DNA of 35,269 bases from IMG/VR virus record IMGVR_UViG_3300046169_000084, positions 1 through 35,269 of that record, one strand, 5' to 3'. Shown here one piece after another: positions 21,082 through 31,492 of the stretch; within the stretch, counting starts at the first letter, position 1, and every line of letters starts with the position of its first letter. A program made the position numbers and the translations under genes. Under the pieces are notes generated by a model. The model searched no databases and was not told the DNA's origin. It saw nothing but the letters and a program-made list of their open reading frames with translations. Source of the stretch: a virus.

Positions 21082-21420
21082 TTAGCCCTCCTCAGAAATT
21101 TTGGCTTCCATATCGACTATTAGGCAAGCGTTCTCGAGCAAAGCCATATCCAAGTATGACTTTACGACTAGACTCGCTCTAAGACGATTTTTGAGGCTCT
21201 GACGGCATTTCTTCTTTTTTAGGTGATGAACAGTGGTGTGGTCAGCATAATTTAGTGCATTTCCGATATATTGCTGGGTAAAACCCAATTCGCTCAGGGC
21301 AAACACGACAATTTGCTTGGCATCCACGATAAATTGTTTACGTCTCTTAGACATCAAAAGATTTTTAGTGACTCCTGTGTCTTCGCACACTCGGTCAATG
21401 ATGTAATCTGCTATAACCAT
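21082..21420 (-). CDS. Free-standing DnaA domain IV (Bac_DnaA_C-type DNA-binding protein)
   Basis: The 112 residues correspond to the DNA-binding domain IV of the initiator DnaA and nothing else. LLMSKRR (residues 21-27) matches the basic loop (L-L-S-K-R-R), VDAKQIVVFALSELG matches the following helix, and ADHTTVHH (59-66) is the signature D-H-T-T-V-x-H that reads DnaA boxes. AAA+ domains for ATP use and oligomerisation are absent. It should bind TTATCCACA. A perfect copy lies across its own promoter and another at the promoter of the replication operon, so I infer autoregulation and a role in phage or host origin control. Its membrane-protein neighbour is in the same operon. Confidence 0.85.
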   Translation of the reverse strand: MVIADYIIDRVCEDTGVTKNLLMSKRRKQFIVDAKQIVVFALSELGFTQQYIGNALNYADHTTVHHLKKKKCRQSLKNRLRASLVVKSYLDMALLENACLIVDMEAKISEEG

Positions 21421-21449: not shown

Positions 21450-21458
21450 TTATCCACA
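21450..21458 (+). promoter_or_regulatory. DnaA box TTATCCACA (perfect)
   Basis: The consensus DnaA box lies 30 bases upstream of the DnaA-domain-IV gene. It overlaps the last base of that gene's -10 element and spans the expected transcription start, a position suited to repression. Confidence 0.8.
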
Positions 21459-21486
21459 ATCTACAGAAGTCGAGATATATAGTCAA
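21458..21486 (-). promoter_or_regulatory. Sigma70-like promoter of the DnaA-domain gene
   Basis: On the minus strand TTGACT (21486-21481), a 17-base spacer and TAGATT (21463-21458) form a promoter pointing at the gene starting at 21420. The leader ends AAAGGATACAA-ATG. It lies in the 3' end of the upstream gene. Confidence 0.65.
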
Positions 21487-21811
21487 GCATTTTTTTAACC
21501 TGTAGGCGATTGTAGCTTCTTCGCCCAGTAAGCCAGTCTCTTAGTAGGAGATATTTTTTGGGTAGGTCTTTAGAACGATAGTATCTATGTGCGTACCAGT
21601 GTGGGTCTGTCTGTACCTCACACCAGAACACCATCGCTGATAGTTCATCTTCGGAGGGCTTACCGTGCCCCTTTGGGGAGAGAAGCTGATAGATTCGTTC
21701 CTTGAACTTGTTTGACCACTCCATGCCCATGTAGATGGCAACGTGCTTTGAGAAGTCGACCATTGAGTAGGGACTCTTTTTGACTGCATCCTTAATTTCT
21801 TCAAGAGTCAT
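21461..21811 (-). CDS. Unknown protein
   Basis: The 116-residue product is helical and aromatic-rich (IYMGMEWSNKFKERIYQLL, MVFWCEVQTDPHWYAHRYY) with a basic end (GRRSYNRLQVKKMLDY). I do not recognise a family. It overlaps the start of the preceding holin candidate by four bases (ATGA), so it is part of the lysis transcription unit. The DnaA-domain gene's promoter sits in its last codons. Confidence 0.6.
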   Translation of the reverse strand: MTLEEIKDAVKKSPYSMVDFSKHVAIYMGMEWSNKFKERIYQLLSPKGHGKPSEDELSAMVFWCEVQTDPHWYAHRYYRSKDLPKKYLLLRDWLTGRRSYNRLQVKKMLDYISRLL

Positions 21812-22728: not shown

Positions 22729-22760
22729 AAAAAAAGGGACATTGCTCGCACAAGTCCCCT
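22729..22760 (-). terminator. Terminator hairpin 2 (minus strand)
   Basis: GGGAC (22736-22740) pairs with GTCCC (22754-22758); on the minus strand seven Ts and then ATTGGTAT follow. Confidence 0.7.
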
Positions 22761-23308: not shown

Positions 23309-24544
23309 CTAAATTTTTAGTCCTAGGTCTTTGTGGTGCAGTAGTTTGATGCGTTCATGTGTGAGCTGTCCTCGCCTGCTCTTCACAACCTTAACGAACA
23401 CACTCTCATAGGAGTGAACGTCACCATCTCTCCACCCCTTAACCTTGAGGTCACCAAACCCATCCATGAGGATAAGGGACTCAACCATGTTGGGTCGGAA
23501 CACTGAGGTCATACAATGAGCCACGTTCTTAATGACTTGCGCCCATTGAGCGTCCTTATACTTAGGCTCTAGTTGCCATCCTGAACGATTATATTCAGAG
23601 ATAGTCACTTGGCTAGGCACGATGACCAACACGTTGAGTTCTTTGGCTATCTGCTTTAGTATTTTAGTTACATAGTTAATCTCTAAGGTTCTTGAGTCGA
23701 ACCTGCCCTGAGCATACACTTCTTGCACGTAGTCAATAACCACGAAGTCAAGACCACCCTCAATTTTTGCTAGACGGCACAGACGCTTAATTTCGTCTAT
23801 GTCATCGGTGTTGTCTACGATGCGCACGTTATCAGCGTGAGCTACTGCTTGTAGGGCTAACTGGGTAGCCGTGTTCACGTCATAATCCTCCATTTGAAAC
23901 CACAGACCCTGATAGCCTTGTACCGCCAACCTAGAAGCTAGGAACGTTGACCATTGGGTCTTTCCATGCCCTGAATCGGCTAGTATCACGTTTATATCGC
24001 CCTTGTGTAGACCCACGTGCTGATAGAGTTGCTCATCTACCTTTGGTTCACCCGTGATTAGCTTCTCCTTCTTGGGCTGGGATTCTTCTCGCTCGAAGAT
24101 TTGTGTTGGGGTTAGCGCATCTACTGGGGTAGCTTCGTCCAGTTCGCCACTGAGCTTATCTATCTGCATCATTAGTTCGTCCATTGTTGTGGACGGATTA
24201 TGAGCGAGCTGGGTAGCCTCGGTCAGGGACTTGGTTAGCCTTCGCCTATCAGCCGTGTCCTTCAGGATACGAGAGTACCCCTTAATGTCGTGCTCAGAGG
24301 TGCGTTGGTGCATCTGAAGCTCAAGTAGATAATCACAGCTATAATTATCCAGCCTAGCCGCTAAGGTGTCCTCATTGAACAGGATGCCTTGTGCGTGTTG
24401 CTCGCACGCTTCTAAGTAAATGGGGTGCAGGTTAGGGAAGTGGGTAGCGTCCGTTACATTGAATATAAGGTCTCTGTATTCTTTGTTAGCAATGAGCGTA
24501 CCAACCAGCACTTCCTCTAAGTGCCTTTGGTCTAATTGGCTCAT
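23309..24544 (-). CDS. Replicative DNA helicase, DnaB family
   Basis: The 411-residue protein has the two-part DnaB layout. An N-terminal helical domain (1-130, starting DQRHLEEVLVGTLI) resembles the primase/loader-contact domain. The RecA-like motor has Walker A ADSGHGKT (189-196), Walker B FVVIDY (267-272), a VIVPSQ segment (307-312) like the motif-3 region, and KVVKSRRGQ near the end (arginine-finger/loop region). It is shorter than the about 470-residue bacterial enzyme, as usual in phages. It unwinds DNA at the fork, here probably loaded through the O-like protein encoded divergently. Its start overlaps the previous stop (ATGA). Confidence 0.88.
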   Translation of the reverse strand: MSQLDQRHLEEVLVGTLIANKEYRDLIFNVTDATHFPNLHPIYLEACEQHAQGILFNEDTLAARLDNYSCDYLLELQMHQRTSEHDIKGYSRILKDTADRRRLTKSLTEATQLAHNPSTTMDELMMQIDKLSGELDEATPVDALTPTQIFEREESQPKKEKLITGEPKVDEQLYQHVGLHKGDINVILADSGHGKTQWSTFLASRLAVQGYQGLWFQMEDYDVNTATQLALQAVAHADNVRIVDNTDDIDEIKRLCRLAKIEGGLDFVVIDYVQEVYAQGRFDSRTLEINYVTKILKQIAKELNVLVIVPSQVTISEYNRSGWQLEPKYKDAQWAQVIKNVAHCMTSVFRPNMVESLILMDGFGDLKVKGWRDGDVHSYESVFVKVVKSRRGQLTHERIKLLHHKDLGLKI

Positions 24545-25719: not shown

Positions 25720-26127
25720 CTTCGCTAAACACACCCTCTGAGTAGAACCCAGTGATTTGTAGAACGGCTCTCGCTTTTGCTCGCTTTTCAGCGGTCTCTA
25801 CTGGATAGTGGGGTAATACACCGCCAGCTTTCTTAGTTTTTACAGGGACAGTTGTAGTGGTTAGCCGTGCCATAAGACTCTACGGTATATACCTCACCAT
25901 TAGCATCTAATTTTTCGGCAATAGCCTTAATACAACAGTTCTCTTGTCCGTCAGGTTAGTTCGGGCACAACCTCATAGGTTACCGTAATCTTATCGTGCG
26001 CCATTATCTTCTCTACCCCAGTTCGGGTAATGATAATGAACCCTTGGTACGGGTGCTTGAAGAAGTCCTTGCCAGTAAGTTTGTACCTTTCGGCAAGCGT
26101 TTTTAGTGTGTTTTGTTCTGTGCTCAT
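25688..26127 (-). pseudogene. ssDNA-binding/annealing-type recombination gene with two frameshifts
   Basis: One protein can be read in three frames. ATG 26127 starts MSTEQNTLKTLAERYKLTG and continues FFKHPYQGFIIITRTGVEKI to a TGA at 25951. The next frame gives DGQENCCIKAIAEKLDANG and VYTVESYGT. The third gives TTTTVPVKTKKAGG, then YPVETAEKRAKARAVLQITG and GVFSEDESEDF to 25688. Both breaks are cured by removing one A from CTAACC (near 25954-25959 and 25859-25864). The Y-P-V-E-x-A-E-K-R-A-x-x-R-A-V-L motif resembles conserved phage proteins beside RecE-like nucleases, plausibly annealases or ssDNA binders. It could be a true pseudogene, sequencing error or recoding. Confidence 0.65.
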
Positions 26128-26969
26128 AATAGTGTAATTGTATTAGTATTAGGTAAGCCCATCTCGGCTTGTTTTGGGTCATTTTTCCACTCACCGATGC
26201 GATACTTAATCACATTCAGCTCCTTGAGTGCGTTCATCTGTGTTTCGGGGTTTAGCCCATATACCGCTGTATTATAGGGGTATTGCTTCTCTATTGCAAC
26301 GAAATAGAAATCATCCACTAGGATGCCCATTACATCGCAATAGAACGCTGCTTGTAGGTCATATCGGTACTTCCAAAAGTCCGAGCGAAAAGATTTTTCA
26401 CTAGCGTCCCTACATGACTTCCAATCTATGATAGCCATTGGCTCCTCGTTTCGGACGAGTAATCGGTCAGGTCTGACACGATACTTTAGTCCGTGCATAT
26501 CTTCCTCATCAGTCAGGAACGAATACTCATCCCACGAATCTGATGGGTCATACATATTGTATATCTCCTTCACCGCAGGGTTATCGTTCATGGACTGATA
26601 CATATATTGGATGGTATACATATCATTCTCTGATATAGACACTTGATTTTCGCCAAGAGAGCACTCAAAGTCCTTCTTATGGGTCTTATAGTCCTTAGTC
26701 ATTGTGGGGCTCGTAATGTCGGGTCTCCTCTCAAGGATTTTTGCTATTATCTCGGAGTCCTTGAACACTTTGAATCGTTTGTGGAATGCTTGCCCATCCT
26801 CAAAATAGGTGTGCATAGCATCACCAAACAGTAGCGCTTGGCTCGGCTCAATGGGTTGTAGCGCCTTAGCAATTGAGTGCTTAGCCACACTCTTCACGAA
26901 TGAACTAGATATATAGTCCTTTAGTGCGTGGTAATCATTGTTGGACATATCACTATAAGTCTTCATCAT
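26124..26969 (-). CDS. RecE-like PD-(D/E)XK exonuclease
   Basis: The 281-residue protein begins YSDMSNNDYHALKDYISSS, the start typical of RecE-C/DUF3799-type nucleases. It then has LLFGDAMHTYFED (H53), YRVRPDRLLV (D168), MAIIDWKSC (D182, K184) and YDLQAAFYCDV (Q206), matching the H...D...D-x-K...Y-x-x-Q order of the family. It should digest one DNA strand from ends to make substrates for annealing; the partner would be the following (broken) gene, whose ATG overlaps this stop by four bases. It is in the replication/recombination operon. Confidence 0.82.
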   Translation of the reverse strand: MMKTYSDMSNNDYHALKDYISSSFVKSVAKHSIAKALQPIEPSQALLFGDAMHTYFEDGQAFHKRFKVFKDSEIIAKILERRPDITSPTMTKDYKTHKKDFECSLGENQVSISENDMYTIQYMYQSMNDNPAVKEIYNMYDPSDSWDEYSFLTDEEDMHGLKYRVRPDRLLVRNEEPMAIIDWKSCRDASEKSFRSDFWKYRYDLQAAFYCDVMGILVDDFYFVAIEKQYPYNTAVYGLNPETQMNALKELNVIKYRIGEWKNDPKQAEMGLPNTNTITLL

Positions 26970-27198
26970 GTACCTCCTGAGGGAATTTGTTTATGGATAG
27001 GGCTGGCTTTTCGAAGCCACTTAGAAATCCCTCTATCTTGAATAGAAGTTCTTCTGCTTCTTCTGACATCATTGTTTCGGGCATCTTAGTAAAATCTGAT
27101 GGGGTTTCACCATCATCATAAAACACCTCATGAAATGAGTACATTTTTTGTTTGCCTGAATTATCAAGCATCAATCGGTAGTCCCAAGCTGGTTTCAT
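26953..27198 (-). CDS. Unknown small acidic protein
   Basis: The 81-residue acidic product starts MKPAWDYRLMLDNSGKQ, has a strand pair (YSFHEVFYDDGE) and a helix (EEAEELLFKIEGFLSGF). It has an excellent ribosome binding site (AAGGAGG) and overlaps the RecE-like gene by 17 bases. Similar small proteins recur before RecE-like genes, but I can name no function. Confidence 0.6.
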   Translation of the reverse strand: MKPAWDYRLMLDNSGKQKMYSFHEVFYDDGETPSDFTKMPETMMSEEAEELLFKIEGFLSGFEKPALSINKFPQEVHDEDL

Positions 27199-27352
27199 CC
27201 TGTATTCCTCCTTTTAATTGTTGTTGGTTTGATTTAGCCGAGTGTAGGCACACCTCAAATGCCCTTATGTAGGCACGTGTATACTCATCGGGGTTAGGTA
27301 GAGAGCGCAAACCTGATAGGAATGCGTTCATAAATTGTATGTGTTCTTCCAT
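27164..27352 (-). CDS. First gene of the replication operon, unknown
   Basis: From ATG 27352 the product has 62 residues: MEEHIQFMNAFLSGLRSLPN, then a helix with AYIRAFEVCLHSAKS. The open frame extends upstream to 27487, but that part covers the divergent promoter region. The chosen ATG follows AAAGGATACACACA, the same leader style as the DnaA-domain gene. Its end overlaps the next gene by 35 bases. No known family. Confidence 0.6.
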   Translation of the reverse strand: MEEHIQFMNAFLSGLRSLPNPDEYTRAYIRAFEVCLHSAKSNQQQLKGGIQDETSLGLPIDA

Positions 27353-27452
27353 TGTGTGTATCCTTTGTGATTCTTGATTGTGGATAAATTTATAAAAAAG
27401 TATTGAGTATCCAAAATTATTTTTATATTCGGGTAAACAAATAAGGAAAACT
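27353..27452. promoter_or_regulatory. Divergent promoter region with DnaA box
   Basis: This 100-base AT-rich region lies between the leftward replication operon and the rightward O-like gene. Leftward: TTGGAT (27414-27409), 16 bases, TAAATT (27392-27387). An alternative leftward match is TTG-N18-TAATTTTG (27440-27412), which fits the Bacteroidota pattern. Rightward: TTGAGT (27403-27408), 17 bases, TATTCG, a weaker match. Overlap of opposing elements suggests mutual exclusion. Confidence 0.55.
27379..27387 (-). promoter_or_regulatory. DnaA box TTATCCACA (perfect)
   Basis: The + strand reads TGTGGATAA, the complement of TTATCCACA. It overlaps the last base of the leftward -10 TAAATT, just as the other box overlaps the -10 at 21458. 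Host DnaA or the phage DnaA-domain protein could block this promoter. Confidence 0.8.
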
Positions 27453-28115
27453 ATGCTAGAAGTACCCAACCACACACAAATACCCAATGTAATAATTGAC
27501 CAGCATATGTCTGAGTTGTCCCACGCTCAGTTCAAGGTGCTGATGGCTATATGCCGAAAGACCATTGGTTGGCACAAGCAGTCGGATTATATAAGCATAT
27601 CCCAAATAGTGGAGCTAACTGGGGTGTCTAACAAGACCGTAGTGGGAGCCATCAAGCAACTCGAAAAGAAGGGGTTCATTGTGACCCAAAAGACTAAGCA
27701 CGCTACCACCCTTATCACTATCAACTATGAGGTAACTAGTGTAGTGAGTACACAGGGTAGTGTAATGGTTACACCACCTAGTGTAGTGAGTACACCACTT
27801 AGTAGTGTAGTGAGTACACACACAAAAGAAACTATAAATAAAGAAGAAGAGGAACAATGTAGCATACCCACCCTTGATGATGTTATAAAATATTTTGACG
27901 GGAATGGGTACACTACGGATAGTGCTAAGAAGATGTATAATTATTATCAGGCATCTGTTAAGGGTAGCAGGCAGAAGTATTGGAAGGATAGTAGGGGTAA
28001 CCTAGTTAGGAGCTGGAGGCAGAAGGCTCAATCTGTTTGGTTTAAGCCTGAGAACAAGAAGAAGGGTGAGGATAGCTGGGAGTCTCAGGGATTTTCACCA
28101 GTGGTTATCAGGTAA
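27453..28115 (+). CDS. Lambda O-like replication initiator
   Basis: The 220-residue protein has the Phage_rep_O winged-helix N-terminus: VPNHTQIPNVIIDQ, LSHAQFKVLMAICRKTIGWHK, ISISQIVELTGVSNKTVVGA, IKQLEKKGFIVTQK. The middle (residues about 95-123) is a low-complexity SVVST repeat encoded by four DNA iterons, followed by an acidic KEEEEQ stretch. The C-terminal part (DDVIKYFDGNGY...WKDSRGNLVRSWRQKAQSVWF) resembles the end of DnaT/DnaD- or O-type loaders. It should bind the iterons and bring the DnaB-family helicase, encoded divergently, to the origin. Confidence 0.8.
   Translation: MLEVPNHTQIPNVIIDQHMSELSHAQFKVLMAICRKTIGWHKQSDYISISQIVELTGVSNKTVVGAIKQLEKKGFIVTQKTKHATTLITINYEVTSVVSTQGSVMVTPPSVVSTPLSSVVSTHTKETINKEEEEQCSIPTLDDVIKYFDGNGYTTDSAKKMYNYYQASVKGSRQKYWKDSRGNLVRSWRQKAQSVWFKPENKKKGEDSWESQGFSPVVIR
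27737..27820 (+). repeat. Four iterons in the O-like gene, GTGTA-N5-TACAC
   Basis: Four 18-base units TAGTGTAGTGAGTACACM start at 27737, 27758 (variant), 27779 and 27803: spacings of 21, 21 and 24, all whole codons and about two helical turns. Three are identical in the first 17 bases. The second has TAGTGTAATGGTTACACC, with the spacer altered but both arms GTGTA and TACAC intact. Confidence 0.85.
27737..27870. other. Probable replication origin (iterons plus A-rich segment)
   Basis: The iterons are followed by a purine-rich, A-rich stretch (about 27822-27856: AAAAGAAACTATAAATAAAG and onward) suited to duplex opening. The arrangement is the one of lambda ori, which lies inside gene O. The DnaA box lies about 350 bases upstream. 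Function is inferred. Confidence 0.6.
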
Positions 28116-28301
28116 GGATTTCTGCCTAGGGATTTTTACTGTAGATTTCTACTGTGGGTTAATAATATAATATCCTAAATGTAAAAGAATGTAAATCAGG
28201 GTAAAAATTGCATTTATTTAATAAAAATGTTGTTTTGCCAATTGCATATATCCGAAACTCTTTGTAGCTTATCCTTCGAACATTAACAATAAAGGAATAC
28301 T
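28116..28301. promoter_or_regulatory. Early leader region 1: repeat units, operator module and promoter
   Basis: This gap opens with three units of the AGATTTYTAC family (28116-28152). It then has the inverted 16-mer TGTAAAAGAATGTAAA (28180-28195) and a promoter TTGCAT (28242) -17 bases- TAGCTT in front of the gene at 28302. No open frame worth calling is present. Confidence 0.55.
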
Positions 28302-29817: not shown

Positions 29818-30085
29818 ATTTCTACGGAGGGTGGCTCTAGATTTCTACCCACCCCTCCTTTAGATTTTTACTGACCCTTACACAATAGATTTTTACCTAC
29901 CCTTAAAATATATATTTATCTGTACCTAGAAATATATCTTTACCTAATATTATATTATATACTAAAATATATATATACCTAATATTATACTATAAATATA
30001 CCTATACAATTTTACATTCTTTTACAAATTGCATATTTCAAATTTCATATATTGGATACGTTAATTTAAACTAAAGTAATACATA
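29818..30085 (+). repeat. AT-rich repeat array A with terminator and operator module
   Basis: This 268-base noncoding stretch starts with AAATTTCTAC (29817), AGATTTCTAC (29839), AGATTTTTAC (29862) and AGATTTTTACCTACCCTTA (29887). It then degrades into AAATATATATATACCTA-like units to about 30010. TTTACATTCTTTTACA (30011-30026) and TTGCATAT (30029-30036) follow before the next operon. A terminator hairpin lies at its start. Confidence 0.65.
29826..29870 (+). terminator. Terminator after first early operon
   Basis: GGAGGGTGG pairs with CCAC and CCTCC (one C bulged) around a loop that contains the repeat unit AGATTTCTAC; a T-rich tail follows. Confidence 0.65.
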
Positions 30086-30268
30086 ATGAAAAATAGAGAT
30101 AGGTACTTAGTAGATAAAGAAAGATATGATTTTAAATATCATGAACTAAATGATGAACTACATCATGAACATGATTATCATCATGAGAAACTTATGGCAG
30201 AAATATATAGGAACCGTATCAATAATGAACTAAAAAAAATAGGTAAAGGAAATGAAAAAACTAAGTAA
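30086..30268 (+). CDS. Unknown charged protein
   Basis: The 60-residue product is unusually rich in His, Asp, Glu and Tyr (YHELNDELHHEHDYHHEKLM) and likely one long helix. The region is far more AT-rich than the structural genes. It begins a second early operon after repeat array A. Metal binding through the His run is conceivable but unproven. Confidence 0.5.
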   Translation: MKNRDRYLVDKERYDFKYHELNDELHHEHDYHHEKLMAEIYRNRINNELKKIGKGNEKTK

Positions 30269-30590
30269 TTATAAGTTAAAAAAGTATAGAAATAATCTAG
30301 TTGATATTCTAGATAGAACACCTAAAGATACTTTTAATGAAGCTAAACTTTGGTATTATAGGGAAAATGAATGGCTTAATAAAGTAGCTGATTATTACGA
30401 TAAAGAAGCTGAAAATATAGCCATGATTACAGCTAGATTATCGGTTCGAAATAAATGGGTTCGTAATAAAATAGATACCCAAAAGATATGTATATCTAAA
30501 AAATGGAATATACCTAGATATAAAATAAAAATATGCACACCTAGTATAAATAAAAATAAAGCTTATGATATATACGAATATCAATCGTAA
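30252..30590 (+). CDS. Unknown basic protein
   Basis: The 112-residue product is basic and Tyr/Asn/Lys-rich (NYKLKKYRNNLVDILDRTP, NEAKLWYYRENEWLNKVADYY) with a helical middle. The start overlaps the previous gene by 17 bases. Very low GC and AAA/ATA/AAT-heavy codon use set it apart from the late genes. No known family. Confidence 0.5.
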   Translation: MKKLSNYKLKKYRNNLVDILDRTPKDTFNEAKLWYYRENEWLNKVADYYDKEAENIAMITARLSVRNKWVRNKIDTQKICISKKWNIPRYKIKICTPSINKNKAYDIYEYQS

Positions 30591-30662
30591 TAAATAGAGA
30601 TGCTTTAAAAATATATAGTTTCTATAATAATCTATTATTAAATGATAAGTACGTTACAATAG

Positions 30663-30845
30663 ATGTTTGGCAAAAAAGAGCCTCTATTAAACAAATATAA
30701 TGTAGACTCTTTTAAACCTAATAAAGTAGAATATAAACAACTTGAAGATTTACATATATCTTTAGCTGAAGATTATAATCTAAAAGGATTTGAACTTCAA
30801 TCTATAATTTGGACACAAAAAAGAAATGAACACTATGGAATATAA
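30663..30845 (+). CDS. Unknown protein
   Basis: The 60-residue product contains DSFKPNKVEYKQLEDLHISL and ends WTQKRNEHYGI. It lies alone between a 72-base AT-rich gap and a broken open frame. Compositional match to its neighbours supports it; no family is recognised. Confidence 0.4.
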   Translation: MFGKKEPLLNKYNVDSFKPNKVEYKQLEDLHISLAEDYNLKGFELQSIIWTQKRNEHYGI

Positions 30846-31034
30846 TAACCTATATATAAAACTAATAGAACATAAGATAAAACAATATAAACTATCTTAG
30901 ATACTGACATAGAAAAAACTAGATTAAATAGATTAGTAAAAATGAGTAATGATAGATTATATAAAAGTATATATTTATACGAGTATAAAATATTATGTGA
31001 ATACTTCAACGATAAATTTTTAGATAGCCTATAG
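30835..31034 (+). pseudogene. Possible frameshifted small gene
   Basis: ATG 30835 opens MEYNNLYIKLIEHKIKQYKL and stops at 30900. A neighbouring frame continues without a start codon as LDTDIEKTRLNRLVKMSNDR and YEYKILCEYFNDKFLDSL to a stop at 31032-31034. The two read as one helical protein with a one-base shift near 30892. Alternatively only the 30 codons from ATG 30942 are used. It borders repeat array B. Confidence 0.35.
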
Positions 31035-31330
31035 ATTTTTATGTATCCTAGATTTCTATATATCCTATAAATTTTTATGTACCTTTAAATTTTTATATAC
31101 CCTAAATTTTTATATACCCTAAAGTAGAAATATAAATATAAATAGAAATATATCTTGAAATATAAATATATATTTACCTAGAAATAAAAATATACTTAGA
31201 AATATATATATACCTAATATTAGAATATACACTAAAGTAGGAATATATATTATATTAGAATATACCTTAAAATATATATATACCTAGAAATAGAAATATA
31301 TATTATAATATACTAGAAACTAATATTAGA
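31031..31330 (+). repeat. AT-rich repeat array B
   Basis: About fifteen degenerate units of roughly 17-20 bases run head to tail: first ATAGATTTTTATGTATCCT, AGATTTCTATATATCCT and AAATTTTTATATACCCT (twice), then AGAAATATATATATACCT-like forms. Units begin A(G/A)A and end ACC(C)T. There are no fixed-length unique spacers, so it is not a CRISPR. No protein is encoded. Confidence 0.7.
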
Positions 31331-31492
31331 TTAATTATTATACGAAAAAATAATATTTGCATATATCAAAAATGTATTTATTAATACTGTTAAAATGTGT
31401 TTACATTCTTTTACAAAATATATTTTGCATATTTGAAATATATGTTATATCTTTCTTTCAGTTACTTAAGTAACTACTTAACACTTAATTAA
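31331..31492 (+). promoter_or_regulatory. Early leader region 3: operator module and promoter
   Basis: It contains TTGCATAT (31357), TTTACATTCTTTTACA (31400-31415), and TTGCAT (31425) -17 bases- TATCTT, then ACTTAAGTAACTACTTAAC before the ATG at 31493. The same order of motifs precedes the operon at 30086. Confidence 0.55.

What the first reader, a model, noticed from the sequence alone, without database searches (positions are those of the whole stretch)
27353..27452. Second promoter with the same DnaA-box-on-minus-10 design, controlling the replication operon
At the leftward promoter of the recombination/replication genes (TTGGAT-N16-TAAATT), another perfect DnaA box (27379-27387) overlaps the -10 by one base, in the opposite orientation to the first. 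Both leaders end AAAGGATACA before the ATG. The only two perfect boxes I found sit at equivalent positions of two leftward promoters, which points to a small regulon of the DnaA-domain protein, or sensing of host DnaA.
Basis: partly seen in the sequence, partly recalled or inferred. Interest (0 to 1): 0.75.

Follow-up and report, generated by a model that had tools for sequence, protein, structure and literature searches.

The report
Phage DnaA-box operators at replication promoters
A family of uncultivated phages carries only the DNA-gripping end of the bacterial replication starter DnaA and places DnaA's nine-letter binding site inside the promoters of that gene and of early replication genes, which points to a self-limiting switch built from the host's replication code.

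Summary
The perfect box TTATCCACA at 27379-27387 shares one base with the -10 of the predicted leftward replication promoter (TTGGAT-N16-TAAATT). The only other perfect box (21450-21458) sits in the same register, flipped, on the promoter of the DnaA-domain gene 21082-21420. The count alone is chance level (2 seen, 2.15 expected). Relatives decide the matter. In 21 non-redundant relatives TTATCCACA occurs 25 times between genes and twice in genes; letter permutations average 0.5 between genes. All 25 lie inside a predicted promoter core, against 5% background, at two registers: on the -10, or in the spacer just after the -35. At the DnaA-domain gene the layout changed at least six times on the protein tree, yet nearly every relative whose gene has its own promoter keeps a box there. 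The protein is a standalone DnaA domain IV with R399, H434 and T436 equivalents invariant. Best explanation: the phage protein represses itself and the early replication genes. Host DnaA may share the sites. In relatives the second target is either the leftward replication operon (window clade) or a rightward early operon. Binding and repression are inferred, not shown. The host is unknown.

The parts
27379..27387 (-). DnaA box TTATCCACA at the leftward replication promoter; shares base 27387 with the -10
   Evidence: conserved in L048-L053 and L059-L063
27387..27415 (-). Predicted leftward promoter: TTGGAT (27414-27409), N16, TAAATT (27392-27387); also reads as TTTG-N19-TAAATT (Bacteroidota-like)
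   Evidence: sequence; a block of about 48 bases is nearly identical in relatives whose exonuclease is 66-95% identical
27403..27429 (+). Possible divergent promoter of the O-like gene (TTG 27403-27405, N18, TATATT 27424-27429), interleaved with the leftward one
   Evidence: read from sequence; inference only
27164..27352 (-). First leftward gene, 62 aa, no family match; leader holds AAAGGATACA
26124..26969 (-). Exonuclease VIII-like PD-(D/E)XK nuclease (DUF3799)
   Evidence: 2.4e-21; 5.4e-36
23309..24544 (-). DnaB-like replicative helicase
   Evidence: 2.4e-18; 3.8e-39
27453..28115 (+). O-like replication initiator, divergent from the leftward operon
   Evidence: Phage_rep_O 4.4e-16; 2e-26
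27736..27819 (+). Four 18-bp direct repeats inside the O-like gene (spacing 21, 21, 24): candidate phage origin
21450..21458 (+). DnaA box TTATCCACA at the promoter of the DnaA-domain gene; TGTGGATAA in the promoter's direction
21458..21486 (-). Predicted promoter of the DnaA-domain gene: TTGAC (21486-21482), N18, TAGATT (21463-21458); its TAG is the stop codon of gene 21461-21811
21082..21420 (-). Standalone DnaA domain IV protein, 112 aa
   Evidence: Bac_DnaA_C 4.7e-13; DnaA structures; model pLDDT 92

Best explanation
The 112-aa product of 21082-21420 is a DnaA domain IV freed from its ATPase. It most likely binds the two TTATCCACA boxes. Each box covers the end of a -10 element and the probable transcription start, so a bound protein should exclude RNA polymerase. 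Early in infection both promoters are open and the exonuclease, DnaB-like helicase and other replication genes are made. As the DnaA-domain protein accumulates it closes the replication promoter and its own promoter, which limits early gene expression and holds its own level steady. Shown: the sequence, the geometry of box and promoter motif, conservation across relatives, the predicted fold. Inferred: that the promoters work, binding, repression, timing.
For: TTATCCACA is 25 times intergenic and twice coding in 21 non-redundant relatives; 1,680 letter permutations average 0.5 intergenic, next highest 9. 25 of 25 intergenic boxes lie wholly in a promoter core, background 5.3%. Box layout at the DnaA-domain gene changed at least 6 times on its protein tree, including a flip in place at a related promoter (L119). 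34 of 50 relative records encode the protein and the other 16 end before its usual place (lengths). R27, H61 and T63, aligned with E. coli R399, H434 and T436, are invariant in 27 sequences and T62 nearly so; R399A and T435M are defective in box binding in E. coli (PMC5742627). The model matches DnaA DNA-binding domains in complex with box DNA. Full DnaA represses its own gene through TTATCCACA (PMC8203912).
Against: No binding or expression data. Host DnaA should recognise the same 9-mer. In L088-L093 the DnaA-domain gene sits in an operon without a box at its start. L065, L067, L070 and L072 show no perfect second box. In many relatives a terminator lies between the boxed promoter and the gene, so the direct product of that promoter may be a short RNA. 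The promoter pattern was written after seeing the sites, and the loci share ancestry.
Confidence: 0.66

Rival explanations
1. The boxes are read mainly by host DnaA: the phage senses host DnaA level or replication state, and the phage DnaA-domain protein acts elsewhere, for example at host oriC.
For: TTATCCACA is the consensus box first found in the E. coli dnaA promoter (PMC8203912). In L088-L093 the rightward promoter keeps its box although the DnaA-domain gene's own start has none.
Against: The most widely kept target is the promoter of the phage's own DnaA-domain gene. No relative with boxes but demonstrably without the gene was found.
Confidence: 0.2
2. The bound protein activates rather than represses, or does either depending on register.
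For: DnaA can activate some promoters (PMC8203912). Two registers exist.
Against: Both registers lie where RNA polymerase sits (on the -10 and start, or in the spacer); classic activator sites lie upstream of the -35 (general knowledge).
Confidence: 0.08
3. The boxes belong to a DnaA-dependent phage replication origin and their place in promoters is secondary.
For: One box lies about 350 bases from the repeats in the O-like gene.
Against: Single boxes, one of them about 6 kb away; the candidate origin with repeats is inside the O-like gene; boxes follow promoters, not repeats, in relatives.
Confidence: 0.05
4. Chance matches to a 9-mer.
For: The count in the window is at chance level.
Against: Conservation and enrichment across relatives.
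Confidence: 0.01

Closest known systems
Autoregulation of bacterial dnaA (E. coli dnaAp1/p2 and others; PMC8203912)
   Same: TTATCCACA in the promoter region of the gene whose product binds it; negative feedback
   Different: Here a phage protein made of domain IV only, no ATPase and so no ATP/ADP switch; one box placed on the -10; a second target is an early phage operon
Small autoregulated phage repressors such as lambda Cro (from general knowledge)
   Same: Small DNA-binding protein that lowers early transcription and its own
   Different: Unrelated fold; operator is the host's DnaA box; operators are single asymmetric 9-mers that work in either orientation
DnaA boxes near lambda pR (DnaA-stimulated transcription; from memory, not tested)
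   Same: DnaA boxes tied to expression of phage replication genes
   Different: There the host protein acts and as an activator; here a phage-encoded domain IV protein is present and the box overlaps the -10
Bac_DnaA_C domains in TnpA-REP-type transposases (PMC6006769) and in Rhizobium phage RHph_N28_2
   Same: Bac_DnaA_C domain outside a full DnaA
   Different: The transposase ends do not resemble DnaA boxes and no perfect box lies in the 9.7 kb read of RHph_N28_2; here box and protein travel together

Membership tests
Bac_DnaA_C / DnaA domain IV (PF08299) | Match to the profile above the curated cut-off | tested here: met
   49.4 bits against a cut-off of 31.5; 34 relatives also above
Bac_DnaA_C / DnaA domain IV (PF08299) | Box-contact residues R399, H434, T435, T436 | tested here: met
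   R27, H61 and T63 invariant, T62 at least 90% in 27 sequences, aligned to 1j1v; roles from PMC5742627
Bac_DnaA_C / DnaA domain IV (PF08299) | Domain IV fold | tested here: met
   Model pLDDT 92; best Foldseek matches 3pvp and 1j1v, TM about 0.66/0.76, E about 2e-3 to 5e-3
Full DnaA initiator | AAA+ ATPase domain III and domain I | tested here: not met
   112 aa; no AAA+ match
DnaA-regulated promoter | High-affinity box within the promoter | tested here: met
   (promoter predicted, not measured)
DnaA-regulated promoter | Binding and a transcriptional response | not testable with these tools
   needs footprinting and promoter fusions
Lambda-type O initiator with origin repeats in the gene | O-family N-terminal domain and direct repeats within the gene | tested here: met
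Bacteroidota-type promoter | TTTG, about 19 bases, TAnnTTTG | tested here: inconclusive
   TTTG-N19-TAAATTTA in the window and TTTG-N19-TATATTAC in relatives fit in part; a general sigma-70 reading also fits; host not found

The most novel reading that the evidence does not exclude
The phage protein is at once the repressor of its own early genes and a competitor of host DnaA at the host's oriC. Its autoregulated level would be set so that host initiation is blocked while phage replication, started by the O-like protein, goes on; the growing number of phage boxes would titrate both proteins and link early-gene expression to phage copy number.
Probability: 0.3. Interest if true: 0.78.

Novelty: new variant of a known kind. 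Interest (0 to 1): 0.64.

Why it matters
It would make the DnaA box, known as the replication-origin and DnaA-regulon code, the operator of a dedicated phage repressor built from DnaA's own DNA-binding domain. That gives a function to a protein for which the PHROGs phage library had no match, supplies a small testable regulon, and raises the question whether such proteins also switch off host replication initiation.

Tried and rejected
Counting boxes alone: chance level. One-mismatch boxes: 30 against 48.7 expected, no signal. A scan of viral contigs with the 27-sequence alignment failed for lack of conserved stretches. Host search in GTDB genomes with the exonuclease alignment: nothing. Isolate phages: no close relative, only distant exonuclease matches at about 25-31% identity among the rows listed. 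Human-gut 'phage' records MT836067, MT835860 and MT837747 look like bacterial oriC/dnaA regions (a DnaA-length ORF amid box clusters) and were set aside. A collection scan for TTGAC-N18-TAnATTTATCCACA returned mostly this phage family plus a few chance-looking hits and one prophage group. A first version of the promoter-overlap test allowed too little space after the -10 and missed boxes lying there; it was corrected. Rfam: no match in the window or four relatives. Papers: no description of a phage standalone DnaA domain IV regulon was found; that library lacks most subscription journals.

Full report
Observation. The window holds exactly two TTATNCACA sites, both TTATCCACA, at 21450-21458 (+) and 27379-27387 (-); dinucleotide shuffles give 2.15 on average, so the number itself means nothing. 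Their position does. At 27379 the leftward promoter reads TTGGAT-N16-TAAATT with the box starting on the last T of TAAATT; at 21450 the leftward promoter reads TTGAC-N18-TAGATT with the box, in the other orientation, starting on the last T of TAGATT. The element AAAGGATACA occurs three times in the window, twice in these two leaders.

Surroundings. The promoter at 27379 leads leftward into a 62-aa protein, an exonuclease VIII-like nuclease and, further on, a DnaB-like helicase, and faces a rightward O-like initiator gene with four 18-bp repeats, a candidate lambda-type origin. The promoter at 21450 drives 21082-21420, a 112-aa protein matching Bac_DnaA_C at 4.7e-13 and no other family above its cut-off. 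A profile of 27 relatives matches DnaA structures 2hcb, 1l8q and 1j1v. The AlphaFold2 model (pLDDT 92) is closest to DnaA DNA-binding domains bound to box DNA, 3pvp and 1j1v (Foldseek E-values about 2e-3 to 5e-3, probability 1.00). Residues aligned with R399, H434 and T436 are invariant; in E. coli R399 reads TTA in the minor groove, the helix starting at 434 reads TnCACA, and R399A and T435M are defective in box binding (PMC5742627).

Relatives. Scans of IMG/VR with the DnaA-domain protein, the O-like protein and the exonuclease gave over 100 loci, some of them overlapping views of one contig. Of 50 records with the exonuclease, 34 encode a DnaA domain IV protein over the Pfam cut-off; by the lengths the other 16 stop within about 6.3 kb downstream of the exonuclease, short of or near the place where the gene lies in the rest (4.1 to 7.5 kb). 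Perfect boxes recur at two kinds of place. First, the promoter of the DnaA-domain gene: TTGAC-N18-TAGAT followed by TGTGGATAA in the window clade and by TTATCCACA in a distant clade, at the same base. Second, an early promoter: the leftward replication promoter in the window clade (TTTG[g/c]ATACTCAATACTTTTTTATAAATTTATCCACAATC), or a rightward promoter past the O-like gene in other clades, where the box lies in the spacer, for example TTTGACATTTAATGTGGATAAGTATAGATT and TTTGTTTCTTTGTGGATAACTAGTATATT.

Statistics. In 21 non-redundant loci (327,817 bases, 14% intergenic by a simple ORF caller) TTATCCACA occurs 25 times between genes and twice within; its 1,680 letter permutations average 0.5 and 3.2, and the next highest intergenic count is 9. 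All 25 intergenic boxes lie wholly inside a promoter core, against 5.3% of intergenic positions. Two cautions: the promoter pattern was written after looking at the sites, and the loci share ancestry. The tree of the DnaA-domain proteins answers part of the second: box layout at the gene's own promoter changed at least six times, and L119 keeps a window-like promoter sequence with the box reversed. A sequence kept only by descent would not be replaced by its reverse complement in place. Exchange of promoters between phages could lower the number of independent events, and in the window clade the whole 48-base promoter block is conserved, not the box alone.

Mechanism. A box that covers the -10 and probable start, or fills the spacer, should shut out RNA polymerase when occupied. 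I therefore read the system as a repressor with two operators: its own gene and the early replication genes. Negative feedback at its own gene would hold the level; closure of the second promoter would end early expression. This is inference from geometry and from known DnaA autoregulation (PMC8203912). Host DnaA, which uses the same 9-mer, may bind too; sequence alone cannot divide the roles. The strongest point for the phage protein is that the box is kept at that protein's own promoter in nearly all relatives where the gene has its own promoter.

What does not fit neatly. In L088-L093 the DnaA-domain gene directly follows another gene and has no box at its start, while the rightward promoter keeps one. 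In L065, L067, L070 and L072 no perfect second box is seen. In L067, L070 and L073 the box at the DnaA-domain gene is weaker (TCATTCACA, TTATTCACA, TTATGCACA) and lies a few bases further down. In L060 about 2 kb of other sequence lies between the boxed promoter and the gene. In many relatives an intrinsic terminator lies between the boxed promoter and the gene. In fourteen distinct leaders this region folds into a first hairpin with compensatory changes followed by the terminator hairpin (4 pairs with changes on both sides against 1.5 in shuffles, 98.7% of cells paired); a search of leaders in four relatives found no Rfam match. So the boxed promoter there may make a short RNA or an attenuated leader; the window itself lacks this element.

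Wider view. A seemingly unrelated phage group with a longer DnaA-domain protein (L123, L125, L127, L129) also has its perfect boxes between genes, in L123 and L125 in a promoter spacer (TTGACTTTTTATCCACAAACACTATACC), while other viral DnaA-domain proteins (L120-L122, L126, L128, L130-L133) do not show this. No host or close cultivated relative was found. No paper found in the held library describes such a regulon.

Verdict. Observation confirmed, interpretation largely supported and extended. A new variant of a known kind: DnaA-box transcription control carried out, most likely, by a phage-encoded domain IV repressor.

Noticed in passing
L020, L069, L077, L078, L081, L083, L084, L091, L092, L094, L096, L115, L119, L141: between the boxed promoter and the DnaA-domain gene: A roughly 90-nt element: a hairpin with compensatory changes, then GCGAGCATCA, then a strong intrinsic terminator. 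Possible small RNA or attenuator made from the DnaA-box promoter; no Rfam match in the leaders searched.
   Followed up: partly
27736-27819: Four 18-bp direct repeats CTAGTGTAGTGAGTACAC inside the O-like gene, spacing 21, 21, 24: candidate lambda-type origin.
   Followed up: no
29830-31450: Very A+T-rich stretch (23% GC) with many imperfect repeats of TAGATTT(C/T)TA(C/T); GTAGAAATC/GATTTCTAC is among the commonest intergenic 9-mers of the relatives (27 copies).
   Followed up: no
28178-28250, 30010-30035, 31395-31430: Recurring TACATTCTTTTACA (or its reverse) with TTGCATAT nearby, upstream of rightward genes: perhaps another operator or promoter element (read by eye).
   Followed up: no
L050, L077, L081, L083, L085, L094, L119 and others, upstream of the DnaA-domain gene: Repeated AAAACCCTTAAATCTGCACAATAAAAAC units of unknown role beside the boxed promoter.
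   Followed up: no
L123, L125, L127, L129: A seemingly unrelated phage group with a longer DnaA-domain protein has all its perfect boxes between genes, two of them in a promoter spacer (TTGACTTTTTATCCACAAACACTATACC).
   Followed up: partly
L135, L140, L146, L151: Closely related viral contigs with isolate-style names carry TTGACACAATAAAATTTGTGCAGTAGATTTATCCACA followed at once by a terminator, with no DnaA-domain gene noticed nearby.
   Followed up: no
window 3721, 9164, 20582 and the loop of the terminator near 22743: GCGAGCA recurs just before several genes and in terminator loops.
   Followed up: no
L153 (MT836067.1), L155 (MT835860.1), L156 (MT837747.1): Records filed as human-gut bacteriophage look like bacterial oriC regions: a DnaA-length ORF (about 450 aa) amid DnaA-box clusters.
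   Followed up: no
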